A stretch of DNA of 53,784 nucleotides from positions 1 to 53,784 of the forward strand of contig VXNK01000064.1 in assembly GCA_009840595.1 (NCBI GenBank). Reading direction: 5' to 3'. The notes under the pieces are model-generated. The model saw nothing but the letters and a program-made list of their open reading frames with translations, was not told the origin of the DNA and ran no database searches. The number at the start of each line of letters is the position of its first letter. Positions within the stretch are counted from its first letter, which is position 1. The translations under genes were made by a program, and so were the position numbers. The stretch comes from Rhodospirillaceae bacterium. Its GTDB lineage: Bacteria > Pseudomonadota > Alphaproteobacteria > Bin65. Positions 42,203 to 53,712 of this stretch are shown here, piece after piece.

Positions 42203-43699
42203 CTATCCGCCGTCGCCGAGCGGGATGCGGCTCTTGCCCTTGATGCGCTGCCAGACGATCAGGACGAGGGTCAGCACAGTGAGGCCCCAGAAGAACCAGG
42301 TGATCCAGCCCTGGAAGAAGATCGTCCAGTCGCCGTCGCCCAAGCGCAGGGAGCGGCGGAAATTGTCCTCCAGCAGCGGCCCGAGGATGAAGGCGATCAG
42401 GAAGGGCGCGGCCGGTATGCCGAGGCGCAGCATGCCGAAGCCGACGATCCCCATGACGAACATCACCAGGACGTCGAAGATCGTGTTGTTGATCGCGTAG
42501 GCGCCGAACACGCACAGCACCAGCACGACCGGAAACAGGATGCGCTGCGGAATGTCGGCGATCCGCGCGATCGAGCGGATCGAGAGCTTGCCGACGATGA
42601 ACAGGTAGGCCGAACTCAGCATGATGCCGATGAAGAGCGCGTAGATCAGCGTGATGTTCTGCTGGAACATCAGCGGCCCCGGCCGCAGGTCGTGGATCAT
42701 GAAGGCGCCCAGGATGATCGCGGTGATGATGTCGCCCGGCACGCCCAGCGCGAGCAGCGGGATCAGGGTCGCGCCGGCGACGCCGTTGTTGCCGGCCTCG
42801 GCCGCGGCGACGCCTTCCAGTTCGCCCTTGCCGAAATTGCCCTGGTTCTTCGACGTCCGCCGCGCCTCGCTGTAGGACAGGAAGGCCGCCGGCGCGCCGC
42901 CGATGCCGGGAATTACGCCCAGAATCACGCCGATCGCCGAGCCGCGCAGGATGGTCTTGAACGCCCGGCGATAGTCGAGCAGCGAGGCACCCCTGCCGGC
43001 GAGCGCGGAGAGTTTCTGCGCGGCTTCCGTCTTCGAATAGAAGTTCAGCACCTCGGGAATCGCGAACAGGCCGATCAGCACCGGAATGAAATTCAGGCCG
43101 CCCATCAGGTCGAAATTGCCGAAATTGAAGCGCGGCGTGCCGAAGATCGCGTCCAGCCCGACGATGGCGAGCGCCAGGCCGAGCCCGGCGGCGCCCAGGC
43201 CCTTCAGCAGGTCGTCGCCGCTCACGCTGGCGATAATCGTCAGCGAGAATACGATCAGGGTGAAGAATTCCGGCGAACCGAAGCTGAGCGCGAAGCTGGC
43301 CAAGATGCCGGCGAAGAAGATCAGCGACAGGTTGGAGATGAAATCGGCGGTGCAGGAGGCGTAGAGCGCCATGTCCAGCGCGCGCCGCGCCTCGCCCTTG
43401 CGCGCCAGGGGATAGCCGTCGAGCCCGGTGCAGGACGCCGCCGGCGTGCCCGGCGCGTTGATCAGGATGGCGGTGATCGAGCCGCCGTAGAGCCCGCCCT
43501 TGTAGACGCCGAGCAGCAGCAGGATGCCGGTGATGGGCTGCATGGTGAAGGTGAAGGGCAGCGCGAGCGCCACGCCCATCGGCGTTGTCATGCCCGGAAT
43601 CGCGCCGATCACCGTGCCGATCATGACGCCGGCGAACAGCGCCACGACATTGTCGATCTGGGCGAACATGGCGAAGGAGGCGGCGAGGGTTTCCCACAT
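42203..43699 (-). CDS. tctA: Tripartite tricarboxylate transporter large permease TctA
   Basis: Large membrane subunit (498 aa) of a TTT carboxylate importer, with a dozen or so hydrophobic segments. Typical TctA text: IGTVIGAIPGMTTPMGVALALPFTF, GGLYGGSITAILINAPGTPAA, and IGVILGVIPGIGGAPAAFLSY. Translation likely couples to tctB, 4 bp upstream. The binding protein is encoded divergently across the ROK regulator gene. Confidence 0.94.
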   Translation of the reverse strand: MWETLAASFAMFAQIDNVVALFAGVMIGTVIGAIPGMTTPMGVALALPFTFTMQPITGILLLLGVYKGGLYGGSITAILINAPGTPAASCTGLDGYPLARKGEARRALDMALYASCTADFISNLSLIFFAGILASFALSFGSPEFFTLIVFSLTIIASVSGDDLLKGLGAAGLGLALAIVGLDAIFGTPRFNFGNFDLMGGLNFIPVLIGLFAIPEVLNFYSKTEAAQKLSALAGRGASLLDYRRAFKTILRGSAIGVILGVIPGIGGAPAAFLSYSEARRTSKNQGNFGKGELEGVAAAEAGNNGVAGATLIPLLALGVPGDIITAIILGAFMIHDLRPGPLMFQQNITLIYALFIGIMLSSAYLFIVGKLSIRSIARIADIPQRILFPVVLVLCVFGAYAINNTIFDVLVMFVMGIVGFGMLRLGIPAAPFLIAFILGPLLEDNFRRSLRLGDGDWTIFFQGWITWFFWGLTVLTLVLIVWQRIKGKSRIPLGDGG

Positions 43700-43703
43700 G
43701 GCG

Positions 43704-44216
43704 TCAGATCCGCTGCAGCAGGAAATCGAGCACGCCGCCGGGAATCGGCCGCTGCGCCGCCTTGACGAAGAACAGGTGCAACGCCAGCGGCAGCAGGAGC
43801 GCGACCGGCGCGACGATCAGCGGCCGGCGCTCGCCCGCCAGCGGCATCAGGGCGACCAGCCCGAGCGTCGTGGTCAGGACGAAGCCGAGAAATTCCAGGG
43901 TCAGGTAGATCGCCAGGAGCAGGGCCATGACGACGAAGGGCCGCCCGGCAATCCACGCCGACCGGGCCGTAGCCGGCGCCGCCGCGTCGGCCGCCCCTTC
44001 CTTCGTTCGCGCGGCGGCCAGCAGTTCGTAAATCAGCAGCAGCGCGCCGATGACGGCAATGCCGCTGCACACGATGTAGGGCCAGAATGACGGCGACAGG
44101 GCGCGGTATTTGACCGACGGCGGCTGCACGATGCCGTGGGGAATGAGCAGGGCGACCGCCAGCGCGCCGAAGCCGACGAAGCACAACCCGGCGACGATGT
44201 TCCGGTTGAGCTTCAT
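43704..44216 (-). CDS. tctB: Tripartite tricarboxylate transporter small permease TctB
   Basis: Small four-helix membrane subunit, 170 aa (DUF1468/TctB). Hydrophobic segments at about 8-28, 45-65, 90-112 (FVVMALLLAIYLTLEFLGFV), and 115-150 are visible. It sits between the ROK regulator (3-bp gap) and tctA, giving one minus-strand unit: ROK, tctB, tctA. Confidence 0.9.
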   Translation of the reverse strand: MKLNRNIVAGLCFVGFGALAVALLIPHGIVQPPSVKYRALSPSFWPYIVCSGIAVIGALLLIYELLAAARTKEGAADAAAPATARSAWIAGRPFVVMALLLAIYLTLEFLGFVLTTTLGLVALMPLAGERRPLIVAPVALLLPLALHLFFVKAAQRPIPGGVLDFLLQRI

Positions 44217-44219
44217 CGC

Positions 44220-45422
44220 TCAGGCCGCGGCGAGGGCGCTGCCGCCGGCGCGCTCCGGCGCCAGCCGGCCGAGGTCGAAGCGCTCGTGGAACAGGTGCCG
44301 GTCGAGCGCCAGCCAGACCACCGACTGGGCCGTGGTCAGCGCGCTGACCTCGGTCTCGAAGGGACGGCCGGCCAGGGAGGGATCGGACGCGGCGCGCCGG
44401 ACGCCGGCAACGTAATCCGGATGCCGCCCCACCTGGCCGGCCAGCAGGACGGCCTGGGGCTTCAGCACGGTTGCGAGCAGGCGCAAGGCCTTGCCGAGCT
44501 CGGCGCCGGAGTCGGCCAGGACCGTCCGGGCGGCAACCGGCAGGCTCTCGCCCGGTTCGGCGATGTCGCGCAGCCGCTGCCCGTCGTCCGCCGGACCGGC
44601 GCTCTTCGTCAAGCCGAGATCGTCCAGCCGGCGCAGGATGGCGAGGCCGGACGCCGTGTCGTCCAGCGTCGCGCCGTCCGACGGGAAGCCGGCCAGCTGC
44701 CCGGCCTCGTTGGCGGCGCCGCGCACCGGCGCGCCGTCCAGCATCAGCGCGGAGCCGAGCCGCAGGCCGACATTGACCAGCAGCACGTCGCGCAGGCCGG
44801 CGGCGCAGCCCTGCCGGGCCTCGGCCTGCAACAACGCGGCAGCCCGGCCCTCGGCGACGAAGGGCACCCCGGTCAGGCGGGCGAGCGTGCCGGCGGCGTC
44901 GACCGGGCGCCAGCCGAGGGGGCCGCCGGCGCGCAACTCCCCCGTCGCCGGATCGACCCGGCCGGCGATCAGCGCCGCGCCGCCTAGGACACGCCGCCGG
45001 TCCCTGCCCGACTCTGCGATCAACTCGGCGGCCGCCTGCGCCAGCGCCGCCAGAGCCGGCTCCGGCCGGTCGAGCGGCAGGCCCGCACAATCGCGGCGCG
45101 CGACGACCTCGCCGCGGCAGGTCGCCAGCACGACTTCCTTCTGGTTCAGGGTGATCGCCATGCCGAGCACGAAGGCGCCGTTGTCGGCAAGGCCCAGGCG
45201 GATCTGCGGCCGGCCGGCCCGCCGGCGTTTGCCGGTCGCGGGATATTCCGTGAGCAGGCGGGCTTCGACCAGTTCCCGGACGATGCGCGAGACGGCGGCG
45301 TTGGTCAGCCGGACGGATTCGGCGATGACGGTGCGCGACACGGCGCCATGCTCGGCGATGGCGCGCAGCACCAGATGCCGGTTCTGACGCCGCAGATCGG
45401 TCGTGGAGGCCGAAGATGCCAC
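44220..45422 (-). CDS. ROK-family transcriptional regulator, degenerate sugar-kinase domain
   Basis: 400 aa, GTG start at 45422. An N-terminal winged HTH (LRRQNRHLVLRAIAEHGAVS, SRTVIAESVRLTNAAVSRIV) is followed by a ROK sugar-kinase-like domain. Two ROK hallmarks are missing: the phosphate motif DIGGT reads NVGLRLGSAL, and the zinc motif CxCGxxGC is absent (FPSDGATLDDTASG in that place). It should bind DNA and a ligand rather than phosphorylate sugar. Position divergent from the tctC-sulfatase unit and upstream of tctBA makes it the likely local repressor. Confidence 0.85.
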   Translation of the reverse strand: MASSASTTDLRRQNRHLVLRAIAEHGAVSRTVIAESVRLTNAAVSRIVRELVEARLLTEYPATGKRRRAGRPQIRLGLADNGAFVLGMAITLNQKEVVLATCRGEVVARRDCAGLPLDRPEPALAALAQAAAELIAESGRDRRRVLGGAALIAGRVDPATGELRAGGPLGWRPVDAAGTLARLTGVPFVAEGRAAALLQAEARQGCAAGLRDVLLVNVGLRLGSALMLDGAPVRGAANEAGQLAGFPSDGATLDDTASGLAILRRLDDLGLTKSAGPADDGQRLRDIAEPGESLPVAARTVLADSGAELGKALRLLATVLKPQAVLLAGQVGRHPDYVAGVRRAASDPSLAGRPFETEVSALTTAQSVVWLALDRHLFHERFDLGRLAPERAGGSALAAA

Positions 45423-45591
45423 GGGGCGCGCCTATTTTTTAACGTCGGTAAATATTTCTTGATTCGAAAAACCGGCTCTGTCAACATGTTCCTGCATCGC
45501 GCGTGCTGCACCGGCCGAAGGACACCGGAGCAGGCGCACATCTGTGCTGTTTTCCGCGTCACAGACGGGAAAATTCCAGGGAGGAACCGAC
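45423..45591. promoter_or_regulatory. Divergent control region of the transporter-sulfatase cluster
   Basis: 169 bp between the ROK gene (minus) and tctC (plus). An A/T-rich imperfect dyad (TTTA, 7 bp, TAAA, within 45433-45456) next to the ROK start is a candidate ROK operator. A TTGATT at 45459-45464 could be a -35 for tctC, but the matching -10 is poor. GGGAGG at 45579-45584 is the tctC ribosome binding site. Confidence 0.45.
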
Positions 45592-46569
45592 GTGTACAAA
45601 CTGACGAAATGGACAACCGCAGCCGTCGCCGCGATGGCGGTGACGGCGGCCGCGATCCCGGCCGTTGCCGCCGATTATCCGTCGCGGCCGATCACCCTGG
45701 TCGCGCCCTACGGGCCCGGCGGCGCGGCGGACCTGCACGCCCGCATCGTCGCCGGCACGGCGCCGAAATATCTCAATCATGCCGTGCTCGCGATCAACAA
45801 GGCGGGCGCCGCGGGCAGCATCGGCGCCTTCCACGTCGTGCGGGCGAAGAAGGACGGCTATACGCTGCTGTCGGCGCGCGTCGGCAGCAACGCCGGCGTT
45901 CCGGCCTTCAACCCGAGCATCCCCTACAAGTGGGACCAGTTCACGTTTCTCGGCCTGACCGAGCGCAACCCGTTCGTCCTGGTGGTCAACGCCAAGTCGG
46001 ACATCAAGACGTTCAAGGATTTCGAGGCGGGCATCAAGGCCGGCAAGATCAAGACCTATTCCTCGGCCGGCGTCGGCACCCTGCTGCACCTGGCGGCGCT
46101 GGTGATGGCCGACGACATGGGCCTCAATCCGGACCAGATCACCCACATCCCGTTCAAGGGCGGCGGCAAGGCCCGCGCGGCCATCGTCGGCAACCAGGTC
46201 CACTTCCTGTGGCAGAACCTGTCCGGCGTGATCGGCGCGATCCGGGCCGGCCAGCTTCGGGCGCTCGCGATCACCACGGGCAAGCGCTTCAAGGCGGTGC
46301 CGGACGTCCCGACCGTGCGCGAGCTGGGCTATCCGAACATGGAGGCGATCATCGGCTGGAGCGGCATCTTCGGCCCGCCCGGCCTGCCCAAGCCGGTGGT
46401 CGACAAATGGGTCAGCGTGCTGGCGTCGCTCAAGAAGGACCGGGCCTTCAACAAGCTGATCGGCAACCTGGGCTCGATTCCGGACATTCGCAGCCCGGCC
46501 GACACCAAGGCCTTCGTCAAGAACCAGTACGAGACCTTCAAAAAGGTGGTCGCCAAGCTGAAGAAGTAG
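45592..46569 (+). CDS. tctC: Tripartite tricarboxylate transporter binding protein (TctC/Bug family)
   Basis: Periplasmic receptor of the TTT system, 325 aa, starting at GTG 45592 with GGGAGG upstream. The signal peptide covers residues 1-25 (AVAAMAVTAAAIPAVAA). The mature part has the Bug signatures YPSRPITLVAPYGPGGAAD, HIPFKGGGKARAAIVGNQV, and RALAITTGKRFKAVPDVPTV. It is followed by a terminator and then the sulfatase genes. The ligand is likely a carboxylate; sulfated or phosphorylated carboxylates are possible given the neighbours. Confidence 0.9.
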   Translation: MYKLTKWTTAAVAAMAVTAAAIPAVAADYPSRPITLVAPYGPGGAADLHARIVAGTAPKYLNHAVLAINKAGAAGSIGAFHVVRAKKDGYTLLSARVGSNAGVPAFNPSIPYKWDQFTFLGLTERNPFVLVVNAKSDIKTFKDFEAGIKAGKIKTYSSAGVGTLLHLAALVMADDMGLNPDQITHIPFKGGGKARAAIVGNQVHFLWQNLSGVIGAIRAGQLRALAITTGKRFKAVPDVPTVRELGYPNMEAIIGWSGIFGPPGLPKPVVDKWVSVLASLKKDRAFNKLIGNLGSIPDIRSPADTKAFVKNQYETFKKVVAKLKK

Positions 46570-46590
46570 GCGGTCCCGGGAAACCTGCGG

Positions 46591-46633
46591 AACGGGCAGG
46601 CGGCCTGCGCCTGCCCGTTTCCGTTTCAGTTTG
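46591..46633 (+). terminator. Terminator/attenuator after tctC
   Basis: An 11-bp stem (46591-46601 with 46609-46619), 7-nt loop, then a T-rich tail. It lies between tctC and the first sulfatase gene, in the same place as the terminator after tauA, and would keep binding-protein mRNA in excess while some transcripts read into the enzymes. Confidence 0.75.
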
Positions 46634-46655
46634 AGTGTTGCAAGGACGCGATCCG

Positions 46656-48194
46656 ATGGCGACGGACCGACCGAACATCCTGTTCATCATGGCCGACCAG
46701 ATGAGCGCCCGCGCGCTCCGGCAGTACGGCAACCGCACGACGCTGACGCCCAACATCGACCGGCTGGCCGACGCGGGCGTGGTGTTCGAGAACTGCTATT
46801 GCAACCTGCCGATGTGCGCGCCGTCCCGCGCCTCGATGATGGCGGGCATCCTGCCCTTCGCCATCGACATGTACGACAACGCCTCCGAGTTCCACGCCGA
46901 CATCCCGACCTTCGCCCACTATCTGCGCCATCTCGGTTACCGGGTGGAGCTCAGCGGCAAGATGCATTTCGTCGGGCCGGACCAGATGCACGGTTTCGAG
47001 AAGCGCCACACGACCGACATCTATCCGGCCAACTTCGCCTGGACGGTAGACTGGTCGAAAGGGCGGGAATACCGGCCGACCAACCTGACCATGGCGCCGG
47101 TCCTGGAGGCCGGCCTCGCCGTGCGCACCATGCAGATGGATTACGACGACGAGGTCGAGTATTTCAGCGTCCAGGCGCTCTACGACCTCGCGCGTTACGG
47201 CACCGACCGGCCCTTCATGCTGACGGTGTCCTTCACCAGCCCGCACCACCCTTATGTGATCGACGAGAAATACTGGGGCCTCTACGACCACGATGCGATC
47301 GAGGCGCCGGCGACCCCGCCCCTCGACCTCGACGCGATGGACCATCTGAGCCGCAACCTGCATTACTGCCAGGCGCGGCACCTCTACGACCTGACCGTCG
47401 AGGACCGCCGCGTCGCGCGCCACGCCTATTACGGCATGATCTCCTACATCGACGAGAAGGTCGGGCGGATTTTCCGGACGCTGGAGGAGACCGGGCTTGC
47501 CGACGACACGGTCGTCATCTTCACCGCCGACCATGGCGACATGATGGGCGAGCGCGGCATGTGGTTCAAACAGCACTTCTTCGACTGGTCGGGCAAGGTG
47601 CCGTTCATCGTCCACGCCCCGAACCGCTGGAAGCCGCGGCGGGTGACGGAAGCGGTTTCGCTGGTCGATCTGCTGCCGACGCTCACCGACCTGGCGAGCG
47701 GCGGGACGTTCGACAGTTTCGTCAAGCCGCTGGACGGCGAATCGCTCGTCCCCGCGCTGGATGGCGAGACGGGCGGACTGGGCGATTGCGTCGTCTCCGA
47801 ATTCGCGGCCGACGGCTCGACCGGCGTCAGCCGCATGGTGCGCAAGGGGCCGTGGAAGCTGATGTGGCTCGAGGGCGTCGATATGCTGCTCTACAACCTC
47901 GACGCGGACCCCGAAGAGACGAACGACCTGGCCGGCGATCCGGCTCATGTCGGCAAGCGGGCGGAACTGGAGGCGATCCTGTTCGAGGACTGGGATCCGA
48001 CGGCCTATACCGACATCATCGCCGAGAACCAGCAGCAGCGCCTGTTCATCCACCGCACGACCGGCGGCGACCCGGACTACGTCAATCTCGTGCGCGAGGG
48101 CGATGACGGCCGTTACGTCCGCAACGCCGGCGCCGCGGACACCAAGGCGAAGGCGCGCCTTCCCCGGGTCGAACCGGCACGGCCGAGCCGATAG
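46656..48194 (+). CDS. Sulfatase, choline-sulfatase-like
   Basis: Formylglycine-dependent type I sulfatase, 512 aa. The active-site CxPSR is at C54 (MCAPSRASMMAG), metal ligands include D14 (ADQ), and TADHGDMMGE supplies the second metal/catalytic stretch. The C-terminus has text reminiscent of the choline-sulfatase tail (WDPTAYTDIIAENQQQRLFI). Choline sulfate is therefore a candidate substrate, but no betA/betB gene is in view, so the assignment is tentative. No signal peptide, so cytoplasmic. It lies 17 bp before the metallophosphoesterase gene. Confidence 0.87.
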   Translation: MATDRPNILFIMADQMSARALRQYGNRTTLTPNIDRLADAGVVFENCYCNLPMCAPSRASMMAGILPFAIDMYDNASEFHADIPTFAHYLRHLGYRVELSGKMHFVGPDQMHGFEKRHTTDIYPANFAWTVDWSKGREYRPTNLTMAPVLEAGLAVRTMQMDYDDEVEYFSVQALYDLARYGTDRPFMLTVSFTSPHHPYVIDEKYWGLYDHDAIEAPATPPLDLDAMDHLSRNLHYCQARHLYDLTVEDRRVARHAYYGMISYIDEKVGRIFRTLEETGLADDTVVIFTADHGDMMGERGMWFKQHFFDWSGKVPFIVHAPNRWKPRRVTEAVSLVDLLPTLTDLASGGTFDSFVKPLDGESLVPALDGETGGLGDCVVSEFAADGSTGVSRMVRKGPWKLMWLEGVDMLLYNLDADPEETNDLAGDPAHVGKRAELEAILFEDWDPTAYTDIIAENQQQRLFIHRTTGGDPDYVNLVREGDDGRYVRNAGAADTKAKARLPRVEPARPSR

Positions 48195-48211
48195 GGTCCG
48201 CCGGGGCAGCG

Positions 48212-50293
48212 ATGGCGGAACCTGCGGGAACGGCGCGAGACCGGCGGCGCGACCTCGGCGCGCGGCGGTTTACTTTCGCCGTCGTCACGGACACCCATCT
48301 CAACCAGGGCGAGGACGAGTGCAATTCGCCCTTCGCGGTGAACGCGCTGGCCAACCGGCGTTTGCGCCATGTCGTCAACGACCTGAACCGGCGCGACCTC
48401 GCCTTCGTCGTCAATGTCGGCGACCTGCTGCATCCCGTGCCGGCCGTGCCGGCGTTGTACGACCGGGCCGCCGCCCGTTACCTGGAACAGTCGGCGGCGC
48501 TGCGGCACCCGCAATACCTGACCCCCGGCAATCACGACGTCGGCGACAAACCCAACCCGTGGGCGCCGACCGCAACCGTCTGCGACGCTTATCTCGCCTG
48601 CTGGGAGGAGCATTTCGGACCGCACTACCGGTCGTTCGGCCACGGCGAGTGCCATTTCGTCATTATCAACGCCCAACTGTTGAACAGCGGCCTGAAAGCG
48701 GAGGCGGAACAGCGCGACTGGCTGGAAGCCGACCTCGCCGCGAACCGGGGCAGGCGGATCTTCCTGTTCACCCATTATCCGCCCTTCGTCGCCGACGAGG
48801 ACGAACCCGAACACTATGACAATATCGGCGAGCCGGGGCGGAGCTGGCTGACCGGCCTGGTGCGCGAATACGGCGTCGAGGCGCTGTTCGCCGGCCATGT
48901 CCACAATTTCTGGTTCAACCGGATCGGCGCGACGGACTGCTATCTCCTGCCGTCGACCGCCTTCGTGCGGCAGGACTATGCCGAGATGTACCGCGCGCCG
49001 CCCGGCCCGGACGATGAGGCCGGGCGCAACGACAAGCCGAAGCTCGGCTATGTCCTCGTCCATGTGCATGCAGGCGGGCATGTCTGCGAACCCGTGCGGA
49101 CCTACGGCGCGACGGCCGATGCCCCGGTATCGCCGGACAGTCTGCCGGCGCCCCTCGCCGCGCCGCATCCGAAAACGATCGACCGCAGCGCATTCGGCTT
49201 CGACATGCGGCAGGACTGGATGGAGACGGTCGAAGTGCCGCCCTCGGGCGGGCTGGACGAGTTCGACCGCAAGCGGGCGCGCAACGACTATCCGCTGCTC
49301 GGCCTTTGGGAAATGGGCATCCGCACCCTGCGCATCCCGCTGAGCGACCTGGCAACGCCGGAACGGCGCGGACGGCTGCGCGCCCTCGCCGAGCATGGCT
49401 TCGCCTACACGCTGTTCAGCTTCGGCGCACCGGATACGCGCACGCGGCGGCTTATCGAAGACAACGGCGACCTGCTGAGCGCTTGGGAGGCCGGCTTCGA
49501 CAGCGCTGCGGCCGACCGCGACCTGCCGGAGATCGCGGCGGCGGCGGCAACGGCCGGCGTCCCGCTCTACCTGTCGCGGCTGCGTTCCCATGATGAACTG
49601 CGCGCCGAGGCCGGGTGCTATTTCCATGTCGTCAACCACGGCTTCGATATCGCCGACCGGGAGCGGATAGAGGCGTTGCCGAGGCGGCCGGACCTCGCCG
49701 GAACCCTGGCCGGGCTCGCGTTCCGCCTGCCGGCCGGGGCGCCGGTGTGCGAAACGCTGGCCGCCATCGACGAACTGGCCGCCGGCCTCGGCCTTCGCGC
49801 CTCGGTCCATCTCCGCACGGCGAGTTTCGATCCATCGCAGCCGGAGCGCGACGATCTCAAGATTGCCGGCCGCATGGCCGAAGCCCTGTTCACCGCAAAC
49901 ACGCTCGGCAACGTCGGCGTCTTTGCCGACACCCTGGTCGATCACGACCGGGGCTATTTCGTGCGGCACGGCGCTTACGACCGGCTGTGCAATCCCAGAC
50001 CCGCCGCCCGCGTTCTCCGGCATTTGAACGCGGTGCTGGCGCACTATCCCGAATGCTTCGGCGAACCCGCCGCCGCGAAAACGATTGCGGGCGCGGGCCG
50101 CCGCCTGATATCCGCCGGGCGGCGCGGCTCGATCGAACTCATGCTGCCGGAAGCGGTTTCGGAGATGGCGCCGGCGCGGGCATTTCCGGCCGGGGAAGAA
50201 ACGGCCGACACGACCTTCATCGATCTCGTTTCGGGCCTCGACCGGACCGGCGCCGCGACGGGGCCGGTTGCCGCGGTGCGCTTGCACTGCTGA
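48212..50293 (+). CDS. Metallophosphoesterase with long uncharacterised C-terminal domain
   Basis: 693 aa. Residues about 20-270 are a calcineurin-like phosphoesterase: TDTHLN (D27, H29), VNVGDLLH (D71), PGNHDVGD (N107, H108, D109), FTHYPPF and AGHVHNFW. Residues about 320-693 do not match anything I recognise. The pattern of strand-helix repeats (GIRTLRIPLSDL, GFAYTLFSFGAPD, GVPLYLSRL, HVVNHGFDIAD, LRASVHLRTAS) and the end segment DHDRGYFVRHGAYDR with RPAARVL suggest a TIM-barrel, perhaps glycosidase-like. No signal peptide. It lies between two sulfatase genes in the tctC unit. The substrate is unknown. Confidence 0.8.
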   Translation: MAEPAGTARDRRRDLGARRFTFAVVTDTHLNQGEDECNSPFAVNALANRRLRHVVNDLNRRDLAFVVNVGDLLHPVPAVPALYDRAAARYLEQSAALRHPQYLTPGNHDVGDKPNPWAPTATVCDAYLACWEEHFGPHYRSFGHGECHFVIINAQLLNSGLKAEAEQRDWLEADLAANRGRRIFLFTHYPPFVADEDEPEHYDNIGEPGRSWLTGLVREYGVEALFAGHVHNFWFNRIGATDCYLLPSTAFVRQDYAEMYRAPPGPDDEAGRNDKPKLGYVLVHVHAGGHVCEPVRTYGATADAPVSPDSLPAPLAAPHPKTIDRSAFGFDMRQDWMETVEVPPSGGLDEFDRKRARNDYPLLGLWEMGIRTLRIPLSDLATPERRGRLRALAEHGFAYTLFSFGAPDTRTRRLIEDNGDLLSAWEAGFDSAAADRDLPEIAAAAATAGVPLYLSRLRSHDELRAEAGCYFHVVNHGFDIADRERIEALPRRPDLAGTLAGLAFRLPAGAPVCETLAAIDELAAGLGLRASVHLRTASFDPSQPERDDLKIAGRMAEALFTANTLGNVGVFADTLVDHDRGYFVRHGAYDRLCNPRPAARVLRHLNAVLAHYPECFGEPAAAKTIAGAGRRLISAGRRGSIELMLPEAVSEMAPARAFPAGEETADTTFIDLVSGLDRTGAATGPVAAVRLHC

Positions 50294-50434
50294 ACGGCCG
50301 CCTCACGCGCCGGGTGCGGACAGGGGGGCCGGGGCGATATATGCTGTCCGGATGACATCCCGGCCATCGTGCGGATTTCCCGGGCCGGGACGGTTGCGAA
50401 CCGCCTTTCGGGACTTTGAGAACGGACTGCCGGA

Positions 50435-51934
50435 ATGACCGCGAAACACCCGAACGTCGTCCTGATCATGACCGACAACCAGCCTGCGGATGCCGTCGGC
50501 TGCTACGGCAACGACGAATTGCATACGCCGAACCTGGACGCCCTGGCGGCGGCGGGACTGCGGTTCGACAACGCCTATTGCCCCAATGCGATGTGCTCGC
50601 CGTCGCGGGCGTCGCTGTGGACCGGCCGGATGCCCTGCCAGCACGGCGTCGCGACCTGGCTCGACGACCGGCTGATGCACACCTGGCCGAAGGACTGGAG
50701 CGCCGTCGGGGAATTCCCGACCCTGCCGGAAATTCTGAAAGAGGCCGGCTACGCGACGGCAATGATCGGCAAGTACCATCTCGGCCGGCCCGACAGGCCG
50801 CAAAACGGAATCGATCACTGGATCGCCATGGCCAGGGGCCACACCTTCAGCTTCTACGGCAACGAAATGCTGTTCGGCGGCGGATCGGGCAGCGAGGGCG
50901 GCGCCACCGTCTTCGATGGACATTCGGTCGATTTCTTTACCGACAGGGCCGTGGACTATATCGAGAGCCGCAGGAATGCGGCCGGCCGGCCTTTCCTTCT
51001 GATGCTGCCCTACAACGGCCCTTACGGCCACTGGCCGTCGATCAAGGGACCCGCGGAGAACGAGTTCTGGGCGCTCTACAGGGACGCGCCCATGACGTCG
51101 GTTCCAAGGGAGGGGCTCTGCAAGCAGGCGGTGGAGATCTACAATCTGACCACGACCCATCTGCTCAAGGGGCAAAAGGGGCCGGACTTCAGCTCGCTCC
51201 TGCAGCTTCCGAACGACCTGACATCGCTGCGGAATTACTATTCCCAGGTCACGTTGATCGACGACCGGGTCGGCCGGGTCATGGACGCCTTGGACGCGAA
51301 CGGCTTCGGCGACGACACCCTGGTGATCTTCACCGCCGACCACGGCTTCTCCCTGGGTCATCACGGGTTCTGGGGTCACGGCCAGGCGACGTGGCCGTCG
51401 AACGGGTTCCGGATCGCCTACAATATCCCGCTGATCGTGTGGGGCGCCGGCGTCGCGGGCGGGCGCGTCAGCGGCCGGTATGTCAGCGGCGTCGACGTTT
51501 TCGCGACCCTCCTGGACCGGCTCGGGCTCTGGGAGGACCGGTTCAGGGCCGGCGTGCCGTCGCGCAGTTTCGCCCCCATCCTGGCGGGCGGGGACATCGA
51601 CTGGACCGACGAGGTGTTCCTGGAGCAGGAGGAAACCCGCGCCATCCGGACGCCGGAATGGTCGTATTTCAAGCGGTTCAGCGGCAGCAGAGTCTATCCG
51701 CTCGAGAACGAACTCTACGATTTGAGCCGCGATCCGGACGAGCGCACCGATGTGGCCGGGCAGGCCGGGTACGGTCCGGTCGAACGCGAACTCGGCGCGA
51801 GGATCGACGCCTTCTTCAACGAATTCGCCGACCCGGAACGCGACCTCTGGAACGGCGGCGCGCCGAAATCGAACACCTCCCGCCCCTGGCTCTGGAAGGA
51901 CGCCTGGGGCGAAGAGTGGCAACCCGTTATCTGA
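50435..51934 (+). CDS. Sulfatase, type I formylglycine family
   Basis: 499 aa, no signal peptide. The active site CxPSR is at C54 (MCSPSRASLWTG), with D14 (TDNQ) and TADHGFSLGHHGFWGHG as metal and substrate residues. It differs in length and C-terminus from the sulfatase at 46.7 kb and lacks the choline-sulfatase-type tail, so it likely has another substrate. A 141-bp spacer separates it from the metallophosphoesterase gene; it may have its own promoter. No anaerobic or FGE-type maturase gene is in the window. Confidence 0.87.
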   Translation: MTAKHPNVVLIMTDNQPADAVGCYGNDELHTPNLDALAAAGLRFDNAYCPNAMCSPSRASLWTGRMPCQHGVATWLDDRLMHTWPKDWSAVGEFPTLPEILKEAGYATAMIGKYHLGRPDRPQNGIDHWIAMARGHTFSFYGNEMLFGGGSGSEGGATVFDGHSVDFFTDRAVDYIESRRNAAGRPFLLMLPYNGPYGHWPSIKGPAENEFWALYRDAPMTSVPREGLCKQAVEIYNLTTTHLLKGQKGPDFSSLLQLPNDLTSLRNYYSQVTLIDDRVGRVMDALDANGFGDDTLVIFTADHGFSLGHHGFWGHGQATWPSNGFRIAYNIPLIVWGAGVAGGRVSGRYVSGVDVFATLLDRLGLWEDRFRAGVPSRSFAPILAGGDIDWTDEVFLEQEETRAIRTPEWSYFKRFSGSRVYPLENELYDLSRDPDERTDVAGQAGYGPVERELGARIDAFFNEFADPERDLWNGGAPKSNTSRPWLWKDAWGEEWQPVI

Positions 51935-52534: not shown

Positions 52535-52646
52535 TGCGCCCGTCCCATACCCGGCAGATACGCCGGCGCCGCGGCATCCGCACCGGCGGCCGGTGTGGCA
52601 AGCCGGCCGACCCCTGTCATGGCGCAGAACACCGCATGCCCCGGTC

Positions 52647-52927
52647 CGTCACTTCGACCGGCGCGCTTCCTCCCGTCACTTCGACCGGAGCACCCCATCC
52701 CGTCATTTCGACCGAAGCGTACCCCCAACCGTCATTTCGACCGGCGCCCCCATCCCGTCATTTCGACCGAAGCGAAGCGAGCGGAGAAATCCGGCCGGCG
52801 ACGGATGCCGGCCAAGCGCTGAAGCTTTGGGCGTCGATGGAGCGCGGACCGGATTTCTCCCCTTCGACTTCGCTCAGGGCAGGCTACTCCGCCCCGGATT
52901 AAATCCGGGGCTCCGGTCGAAATGACG
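52647..52927. repeat. Dispersed-repeat array with a core of CGTCA(C/T)TTCGACCG
   Basis: Five direct copies of a 14-bp core start at 52647, 52674, 52701, 52730 and 52756 (spacing 27, 27, 29 and 26 bp). A sixth lies inverted at 52914-52927. Inside, GGAGAAATCCGG (52783-52794) pairs with CCGGATTTCTCC (52849-52860), and CCCCGGATT pairs with AATCCGGGG near 52892-52910. This is a REP/ERIC-like element of the type common in alphaproteobacterial genomes. It is not CRISPR: the conserved core is too short and the spacers are similar to each other. Confidence 0.85.
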
Positions 52928-53712
52928 GGATGGGTTCAAGGACCGGATCGGGCACAAGTCCGGCAAGCTCCGCCGCGCCGGTCTTCCAAAAATATTTCCT
53001 TTCTATAGATAATATTCCTTGAAACGGCAGATCCCGCGCCCCATATCCACCCCGTCAACGCCCGAGGTGCGCCTGCCGCGGCCGGCCGACGCTCCCCAAA
53101 AGGAAGCGAGCGAAGAAACAGGCGGGAACCTGCCCGCTTTCCGGCCCGCCGCCGCCGGTTGGCCACCCTGTGCGCCATTGGGCTTGACGGCCGGACCCCG
53201 ATGCGGATTCCGTCCGGTTCGACCCTCCGATCCCGCCGGGCCATCGTGCCCCCGATCCTGCCCGGCGGCGGCGCCCCCGGTGTCGAACGGCGCTCCCGTT
53301 CGGCCGGGATGCTGGAAAATTTCCTATCGTGATCGTTTTTGTGCACTTCTGAAGGGCGTCTTTTCAACGATTCCAAAGGGTTAGGGCAGGCGGCGCGCAA
53401 AAAAAGCATGCAAGAAAGACCGGTCTGTCTAATTCAAGAATCAAACGATTTCAAAGACTTGGCAGACTTTATCTTAAACAATCATTCAAAAACAGCCGGT
53501 CCGGCGGCCCGTCAGCGATGCGGCCTGCCGCCCCGCGAACCGGGTCGCGCGCCGGACGGGCGTATTCCGGGGCAGCGCCGACCCGTGCGTCCTTATCCGT
53601 GCGCGTCTGTGCCCGTGGGCGTCTTTACAGGCCGCCCGCGCCGGTCCATATCTGTGCGGGCCGAATGCCGGCGCCGGAGCGGTCCGCACGCGACCCGCGG
53701 CGCCCGCCGGAC
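52928..53712. other. Gene-poor stretch between the repeat array and tRNA-Lys
   Basis: About 785 bp without a convincing gene. An A/T-rich patch (53401-53460 has 21 of 60 G+C) lies inside otherwise GC-rich DNA. Short open frames on both strands have no start signals or recognisable proteins. The last bases (53701-53717) can form CGCCCG/CGGGCG pairing that overlaps the tRNA 5' end. I see no integrase or attachment-site copy. Confidence 0.5.

What the first reader, a model, noticed from the sequence alone, without database searches (positions are those of the whole stretch)
42203..51934. Transporter, degenerate ROK regulator, two sulfatases and a fused phosphoesterase: a possible undescribed catabolic system
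A complete TTT importer and a divergent ROK regulator control a unit of two sulfatases flanking a metallophosphoesterase. Neither sulfatase nor the phosphoesterase has a signal peptide, so substrates would be imported whole and desulfated or dephosphorylated inside. TTT systems usually move carboxylates, so a sulfated or phosphorylated organic acid, or a choline sulfate-like compound, is a reasonable guess.
Basis: inference. Interest (0 to 1): 0.6.

Follow-up and report, generated by a model that had tools for sequence, protein, structure and literature searches.

The report
Import-and-desulfation locus, not choline sulfate
A marine, probably sponge-associated bacterium carries a conserved gene block that appears to import a small acidic compound and cut off its sulfate and phosphate groups inside the cell; its sulfatase carries the database name 'choline-sulfatase' but has lost the residues that hold choline, so its real substrate is unknown.

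Summary
The genes are there. TctA, TctB, a ROK regulator, TctC, sulfatase A and a two-domain metallophosphoesterase form a real unit: the six keep one order in five other genomes of the genus, a sixth lacks the three genes searched, and six or five of them recur, rearranged, in two other alphaproteobacterial lineages. Sulfatase B is not a fixed member (3 of 7 genus genomes, elsewhere in one). Sulfatase A passes NCBIfam's choline-sulfatase cut-off (561 versus 433 bits) but lacks the choline clamp seen in crystal structures (His145, Trp143, Tyr144 gone; Glu386 is Asp). It belongs to a supported clade (98/94) whose 13 compared members have all lost this hairpin; all 21 members of the choline clade keep His145 and Glu386. 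Its clade sits beside TTT or TRAP importers, usually with a ROK regulator; none of 11 choline-clade loci does. The same genome has a better choline-sulfatase candidate beside an OpuAC-type transporter. The phosphoesterase domain is GpdQ-like; its C-terminal domain has no Pfam match. Most likely: uptake of an anionic sulfate/phosphate ester and its hydrolysis in the cytosol. The substrate is unknown; choline sulfate is unlikely. Verdict: new variant of a known kind.

The parts
42203..43699 (-). tctA, large membrane subunit of a tripartite tricarboxylate (TTT) transporter
   Evidence: PF01970, 474.9 bits; 95-98% identical in the genus, 66-72% in L037 and L023
43704..44216 (-). tctB, small membrane subunit
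   Evidence: PF07331, 56.7 bits; 4 bp from tctA
44220..45422 (-). degenerate ROK-family transcriptional regulator, first gene before tctB-tctA
   Evidence: PF00480 48.2 bits plus MarR_2 HTH; zinc motif and EIGH residues absent in the alignment to an NagC/Mlc-like chain
45423..45591 (.). divergent intergenic region between the ROK gene and tctC; conserved block about 45430-45500 with a promoter-like TTGATT (45459-45464), 17 bp, CAACAT (45482-45487) for tctC
   Evidence: near-invariant across six genus members (alignment A5); promoter reading by inspection
45592..46569 (+). tctC, periplasmic binding protein with signal peptide
   Evidence: PF03401 154.5 bits; hydrophobic N-terminus ending AVAA; nearest PDB 2dvz and BugD
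46589..46622 (+). GC-rich stem-loop between tctC and sulfA, possibly for unequal expression of the binding protein
   Evidence: the same stem folds in the window, L020, L022 and L025; the whole stretch is only moderately more stable than shuffles (z -1.1 to -3.6)
46656..48194 (+). sulfA, cytosolic formylglycine-type sulfatase of the choline-sulfatase family without the choline clamp
   Evidence: TIGR03417 560.7 bits, cut-off 433.45; Cys54 motif; His145, Trp143 and Tyr144 replaced, Glu386 is Asp
48212..50293 (+). two-domain metallophosphoesterase: GpdQ-like domain (residues about 16-300) plus a conserved C-terminal region (about 330-693) with no Pfam match
   Evidence: PF00149 46.7 bits; VIA-align Z 22.8 to GpdQ 2dxl; 96 residues invariant in 13 relatives over both domains
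50435..51934 (+). sulfB, second cytosolic sulfatase, optional neighbour
   Evidence: PF00884 180 bits; present in 3 of 7 genus genomes, adjacent to the phosphoesterase gene in two, elsewhere in G002

Best explanation
An uptake and cytosolic ester-cleavage module. TctC binds a small anionic sulfate or phosphate ester in the periplasm and TctAB brings it in (inferred from the families). In the cytosol SulfA, after Cys54 is converted to formylglycine by the genome's FGE, hydrolyses the sulfate ester (catalytic residues shown, activity inferred). The two-domain enzyme cleaves a phosphoester, most likely a phosphodiester as GpdQ does, and its C-terminal domain may carry a second activity (inferred). 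The degenerate ROK protein controls the divergent promoter in response to the compound or a product (inferred). The substrate is unlikely to be choline-O-sulfate; a small acidic or polyhydroxylated compound is more likely. Sulfatase B is an optional addition.
For: Six-gene block in one order in five other genus genomes, absent (three genes searched) from G006. Pelagibius L023 holds all six and G356 (L037) five, rearranged. SulfA clade separate from the choline clade, clamp residues lost in 13 of 13 versus kept in 21 of 21 at His145 (with PMC9063841). TTT or TRAP genes in all five SulfA-clade lineages and a ROK hit in four, none in 11 choline-clade loci. FGE present. GpdQ-like fold of the N-terminal domain.
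Against: No biochemical data. TTT and ROK ligands cannot be read from sequence. Relatives of the phosphoesterase also occur without sulfatase or TTT (L024, L035, L036), so its tie to the sulfated compound is not obligatory. Asp can replace Glu at 386 and Pelagibius keeps Glu there, so binding of some cationic group is not excluded. Neighbours give mixed hints: sarcosine oxidase in L037, sugar-acid-type enzymes in L071.
Confidence: 0.55

Rival explanations
1. A choline-ester salvage system: SulfA is a true choline-O-sulfatase and the phosphoesterase a glycerophosphocholine phosphodiesterase, both yielding choline.
For: TIGR03417 above cut-off; nearest structures are S. meliloti choline sulfatase; nearest fold GpdQ; sarcosine oxidase genes beside the L037 cluster.
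Against: Choline clamp His145, Trp143 and Tyr144 lost in the whole clade; a paralog in the same genome keeps them and sits beside OpuAC and permease genes; TTT and TRAP are not known choline importers (own knowledge).
Confidence: 0.12
2. A sulfated-glycan fragment system: both sulfatases strip sugar or uronate sulfates taken up as mono- or disaccharides from host or algal polysaccharides.
For: About 12 sulfatase genes in the genome (13 Pfam matches, two being pieces of one gene); SulfB nearest PDB match by sequence is a GlcNAc-6-sulfatase; ROK regulators usually sense sugars (own knowledge); close relatives include the MAG Rhodospirillaceae bin65, and a published binning study of the sponge Aplysina aerophoba discusses sulfated polysaccharides (PMC5649159, abstract and counts only).
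Against: No signal peptides on the sulfatases; no glycan-degrading enzyme recognised among the genes at 42-52 kb; SulfB not conserved in the unit; sugar-binding residues of the ROK protein missing. The wider genome was not searched for such enzymes.
Confidence: 0.18
3. Two separate functions side by side: the TTT-SulfA-ROK genes form one system and the phosphoesterase serves another role, such as phosphodiester or phosphonate-ester use, without a common substrate.
For: Phosphoesterase relatives lie with aminophosphonate genes (L036) or without recognisable partners (L024, L035); SulfA-clade loci in L071 and L072 had no hit to the phosphoesterase.
Against: Phosphoesterase and TTT-SulfA genes stay together in three lineages despite rearrangement; the phosphoesterase has a TctC neighbour in Variovorax, Cupriavidus and G687 too, though those TctCs are only about 30% identical and such genes are numerous in that group (own knowledge).
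Confidence: 0.15

Closest known systems
Choline-O-sulfatase BetC of Sinorhizobium meliloti (PDB 6fny, 7pth; NCBIfam TIGR03417)
   Same: About 41% identity over the full length, same formylglycine catalytic set and several oligomerisation-tail residues
   Different: Choline-binding hairpin lost (Trp143 to Thr, Tyr144 to Asn, His145 to Leu), Glu386 to Asp, Gln483 to Leu; TTT plus ROK neighbours rather than a choline or betaine transporter
TTT (TctABC) transporters, Bug-type binding proteins
   Same: All three subunits, binding protein with signal peptide
   Different: tctC is split from tctBA by a divergent promoter and the ROK gene; linked to a sulfatase and a phosphoesterase
ROK regulators NagC and Mlc
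   Same: Winged HTH plus ROK domain
   Different: CxCGxxGC zinc motif and EIGH residues absent; Mlc and NagC NCBIfam scores far below cut-off
GpdQ glycerophosphodiesterase of Enterobacter aerogenes (PDB 2dxl, 3d03)
   Same: Metallophosphoesterase fold and motifs (Asp27, His29, Asp71, Asn107, His108, His188, His229, His231), Z 22.8 over 212 residues
   Different: 22% identity over aligned residues; fused to a C-terminal region of about 360 residues with no Pfam match

Membership tests
Choline-O-sulfatase (TIGR03417) | Profile score above the curated cut-off | tested here: met
   560.7 bits versus 433.45
Choline-O-sulfatase (TIGR03417) | Formylglycine motif and catalytic residues (Asp14, Cys54, Lys102, His104, His201, His297, Lys309) | tested here: met
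Choline-O-sulfatase (TIGR03417) | Choline-binding hairpin GW-X13-WYHN with Trp129 and His145 clamping the ammonium (PMC9063841) | tested here: not met
   Trp129 kept, but Trp143, Tyr144 and His145 replaced by Thr, Asn, Leu
Choline-O-sulfatase (TIGR03417) | Glu386 (PMC5870055) | tested here: not met
   Asp in the window, genus members and L037; Glu in Pelagibius
Choline-O-sulfatase (TIGR03417) | Hydrolysis of choline-O-sulfate | not testable with these tools
   needs an assay
Formylglycine-dependent sulfatase (PF00884) | C-x-P/A-x-R motif and a maturation enzyme in the genome | tested here: met
   motif at residue 54 in both sulfatases; FGE PF03781 at G000:C54
TTT transporter | TctA, TctB and TctC subunits | tested here: met
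   three Pfam families over cut-off
TTT transporter | Carboxylate or other ligand | not testable with these tools
   no binding data
ROK repressor (NagC/Mlc type) | HTH plus ROK domain | tested here: met
ROK repressor (NagC/Mlc type) | Zinc motif CxCGxxGC and EIGH sugar-site residues | tested here: not met
   absent in the alignment to 3bp8
GpdQ-like phosphodiesterase | Metallophosphoesterase fold and metal-ligand motifs | tested here: met
   motif residues invariant; Z 22.8
GpdQ-like phosphodiesterase | Glycerophosphodiesterase activity | not testable with these tools
   needs an assay
TIM-barrel enzyme (C-terminal domain) | (beta/alpha)8 fold with a recognised relative | tested here: inconclusive
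   alternating strands and helices in a low-confidence model; no Pfam match, no significant PDB sequence match; not folded or searched alone

The most novel reading that the evidence does not exclude
SulfA belongs to a distinct subfamily of alkyl sulfatases, labelled choline-sulfatase in databases, that acts on a different and possibly common marine sulfate ester brought in by TTT or TRAP transporters; the fused enzyme is a two-activity hydrolase, so that one compound carrying both sulfate and phosphoester groups is fully stripped in the cytosol.
Probability: 0.2. Interest if true: 0.7.

Novelty: new variant of a known kind. Interest (0 to 1): 0.42.

Why it matters
It separates, by residues, tree and neighbourhood, a group of enzymes that automatic annotation can name choline-sulfatase but that is unlikely to act on choline sulfate, and it names the transporter and regulator to test with them. 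Counting TIGR03417 hits as choline-sulfate users in marine or sponge metagenomes would then overestimate that trait. It also points to a conserved two-domain phosphoesterase whose second domain has no Pfam family.

Tried and rejected
Choline sulfate as substrate: judged unlikely on the clamp residues and the better paralog. SulfB as a core part: rejected on its distribution. TctA alone as a marker: rejected, since orthologs at about 65% sit in three other genomes with TctCs only 38-39% identical to the window's. Aminophosphonate degradation as the role here: the phosphoesterase neighbours pbfA in L036, but the own genome has no PbfA over the cut-off. Naming the C-terminal domain: no Pfam match in seven members, only insignificant PDB sequence matches, and the rows shown by the fold searches were filled by the N-terminal domain. 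A single-sequence fold was poor (pLDDT 38); the aligned one moderate (59). Inverted repeats as ROK operator: only one distant imperfect pair. Papers holding both metallophosphoesterase and tripartite tricarboxylate: none in the library.

Full report
Observation. The minus-strand set ROK-tctB-tctA is packed within 3-4 bp; tctC, sulfA, the phosphoesterase gene and sulfB run the other way from a shared intergenic region. The sulfatases and the phosphoesterase show no export signal by inspection; TctC does.

Conservation. L020, L021, L022, L025 and L038 (and L039, which gives the same values as L021) show all six genes in the same order; they stand for five other genomes of the genus, G001-G005. 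In L022 the ROK match falls in two pieces. G006 of the same genus has no match to the phosphoesterase (E 0.001), SulfA (1e-100) or TctA (1e-150). Outside the genus, Pelagibius L023 has all six, rearranged (SulfA 50%, TctC 56%, TctA 72%, phosphoesterase 58%, ROK and TctB about 31%), and L037 (G356) has TctA 66%, TctB, TctC 54%, SulfA 66% and the phosphoesterase 45%, without a ROK hit. SulfB fails this test: 3 of 7 genus genomes have it, and in G002 it lies at another place with no other block gene within the 20 kb read. The non-coding region between the ROK gene and tctC has a block of about 70 bp nearly unchanged in six members.

SulfA. It scores as choline-sulfatase, and its closest solved structures are those of S. 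meliloti choline sulfatase. Catalytic residues and several tail residues are kept. Crystal structures show Trp129 and His145 clamping the quaternary ammonium, with Trp143 and Tyr144 within 5 A (PMC9063841); mutagenesis implicated residue 386 (PMC5870055). In a tree of 46 rows SulfA falls in a clade of 19 rows (98/94) apart from a clade of 21 rows that holds the S. meliloti enzyme (88/81). In 13 chosen rows of the SulfA clade, duplicates left out, the residues at His145, Trp143, Tyr144 and Asp202 are changed in every case; in the 21 choline-clade rows His145, Glu386 and Asp202 are kept in every case. The rows were grouped after seeing the tree and the alignment is automatic, but the contrast at His145 is complete. 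The 13 rows include near-identical genus members and come from five lineages.

Neighbourhood contrast. SulfA-clade loci carry TctA or TRAP genes in all five lineages (the genus, Pelagibius, G356, G163, G387) and a ROK hit in four. None of 11 choline-clade loci hits TctA, TctC, DctM or ROK, while two hit OpuAC. Those loci span 12-20 kb. The own genome's choline-clade paralog (G000:C71, L003/L026) lies beside OpuAC and permease genes.

The two-domain enzyme. The N-terminal domain keeps the metallophosphoesterase motifs and fits GpdQ best (Z 22.8, 212 residues, rmsd 2.3). The C-terminal part alternates strands and helices in a low-confidence model, and polar residues such as Arg357, Asn358, Asp359, Glu426, His472, Asp577, Asp579 and Arg580 are invariant in 13 relatives. 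It has no Pfam match. Long relatives are rare: 8 of 385 alphaproteobacterial genomes at E 1e-40 and two plasmid records, both of Betaproteobacteria. Their neighbours vary: TTT plus SulfA in three lineages, aminophosphonate genes including pbfA in L036, and a TctC gene directly downstream in Variovorax, Cupriavidus and G687, with a SulP permease after it in the last two. Those TctCs are about 30% identical to the window's, so this link is suggestive only.

Mechanism. The best reading is uptake of an anionic ester by TTT, cytosolic desulfation by SulfA, phosphoester cleavage by the fused enzyme, and control by a ROK protein that no longer has the usual zinc and sugar sites. Shown: genes, motifs, co-location, loss of the choline clamp. 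Inferred: direction of transport, substrates, order of reactions, regulation. The compound is unknown. Neighbours point to amino compounds in some lineages (sarcosine oxidase in L037) and to alcohol or sugar-acid oxidation in others (GMC oxidoreductase and an enolase-family protein in L071).

Limits. The data are sequence only, many from MAGs. Genome samples were drawn by the tool, and genus members are not independent: the independent lineages number five for the SulfA clade and three for the TTT-SulfA-phosphoesterase set. Neighbour genes were found by tblastn with window and relative proteins, so distant homologs could be missed.

Noticed in passing
L036 8722-13780: A phosphoesterase relative lies 44 bp before a PbfA gene (over the NCBIfam cut-off) and an FAD oxidoreductase, in a stretch with PhnW, PhnD and PhnA: a possible extra step in aminophosphonate use.
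   Followed up: partly
L110 8097-13002; L114 9956-14875; L113 9950-13015: The two-domain phosphoesterase is followed by a TctC gene in three loci, and in L110 and L114 then by a SulP sulfate-permease-family gene.
   Followed up: partly
L096 7167-14537: Another TTT transporter (TctC, TctB, TctA) followed by a regulator-like gene, a sulfatase (31% to SulfA), an SMP-30/gluconolactonase and a PLP enzyme.
   Followed up: no
L071 5842-18301; L072 1420-18640: SulfA-clade sulfatases in clusters with a ROK regulator, a TRAP transporter, a GMC oxidoreductase-like gene, an aldehyde dehydrogenase and an enolase-superfamily-like gene.
   Followed up: partly
L022 6062-7212: The ROK gene match falls in two pieces in this genome, suggesting a frameshift or an assembly error.
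   Followed up: no
L109 8872-10371 and L027: SulfB of G002 lies between a membrane-protein-like gene and an ABC1-kinase-like gene; similar neighbours occur in the own genome at L027 without SulfB between them.
   Followed up: no
window 52639-52934: Five direct 26-29 bp spaced copies of a GTCATTTCGACCG-type repeat and one inverted copy, before the tRNA-Lys gene.
   Followed up: no
L023 2238-3683: A 6-phosphogluconate dehydrogenase-like gene lies next to SulfA in Pelagibius.
   Followed up: no
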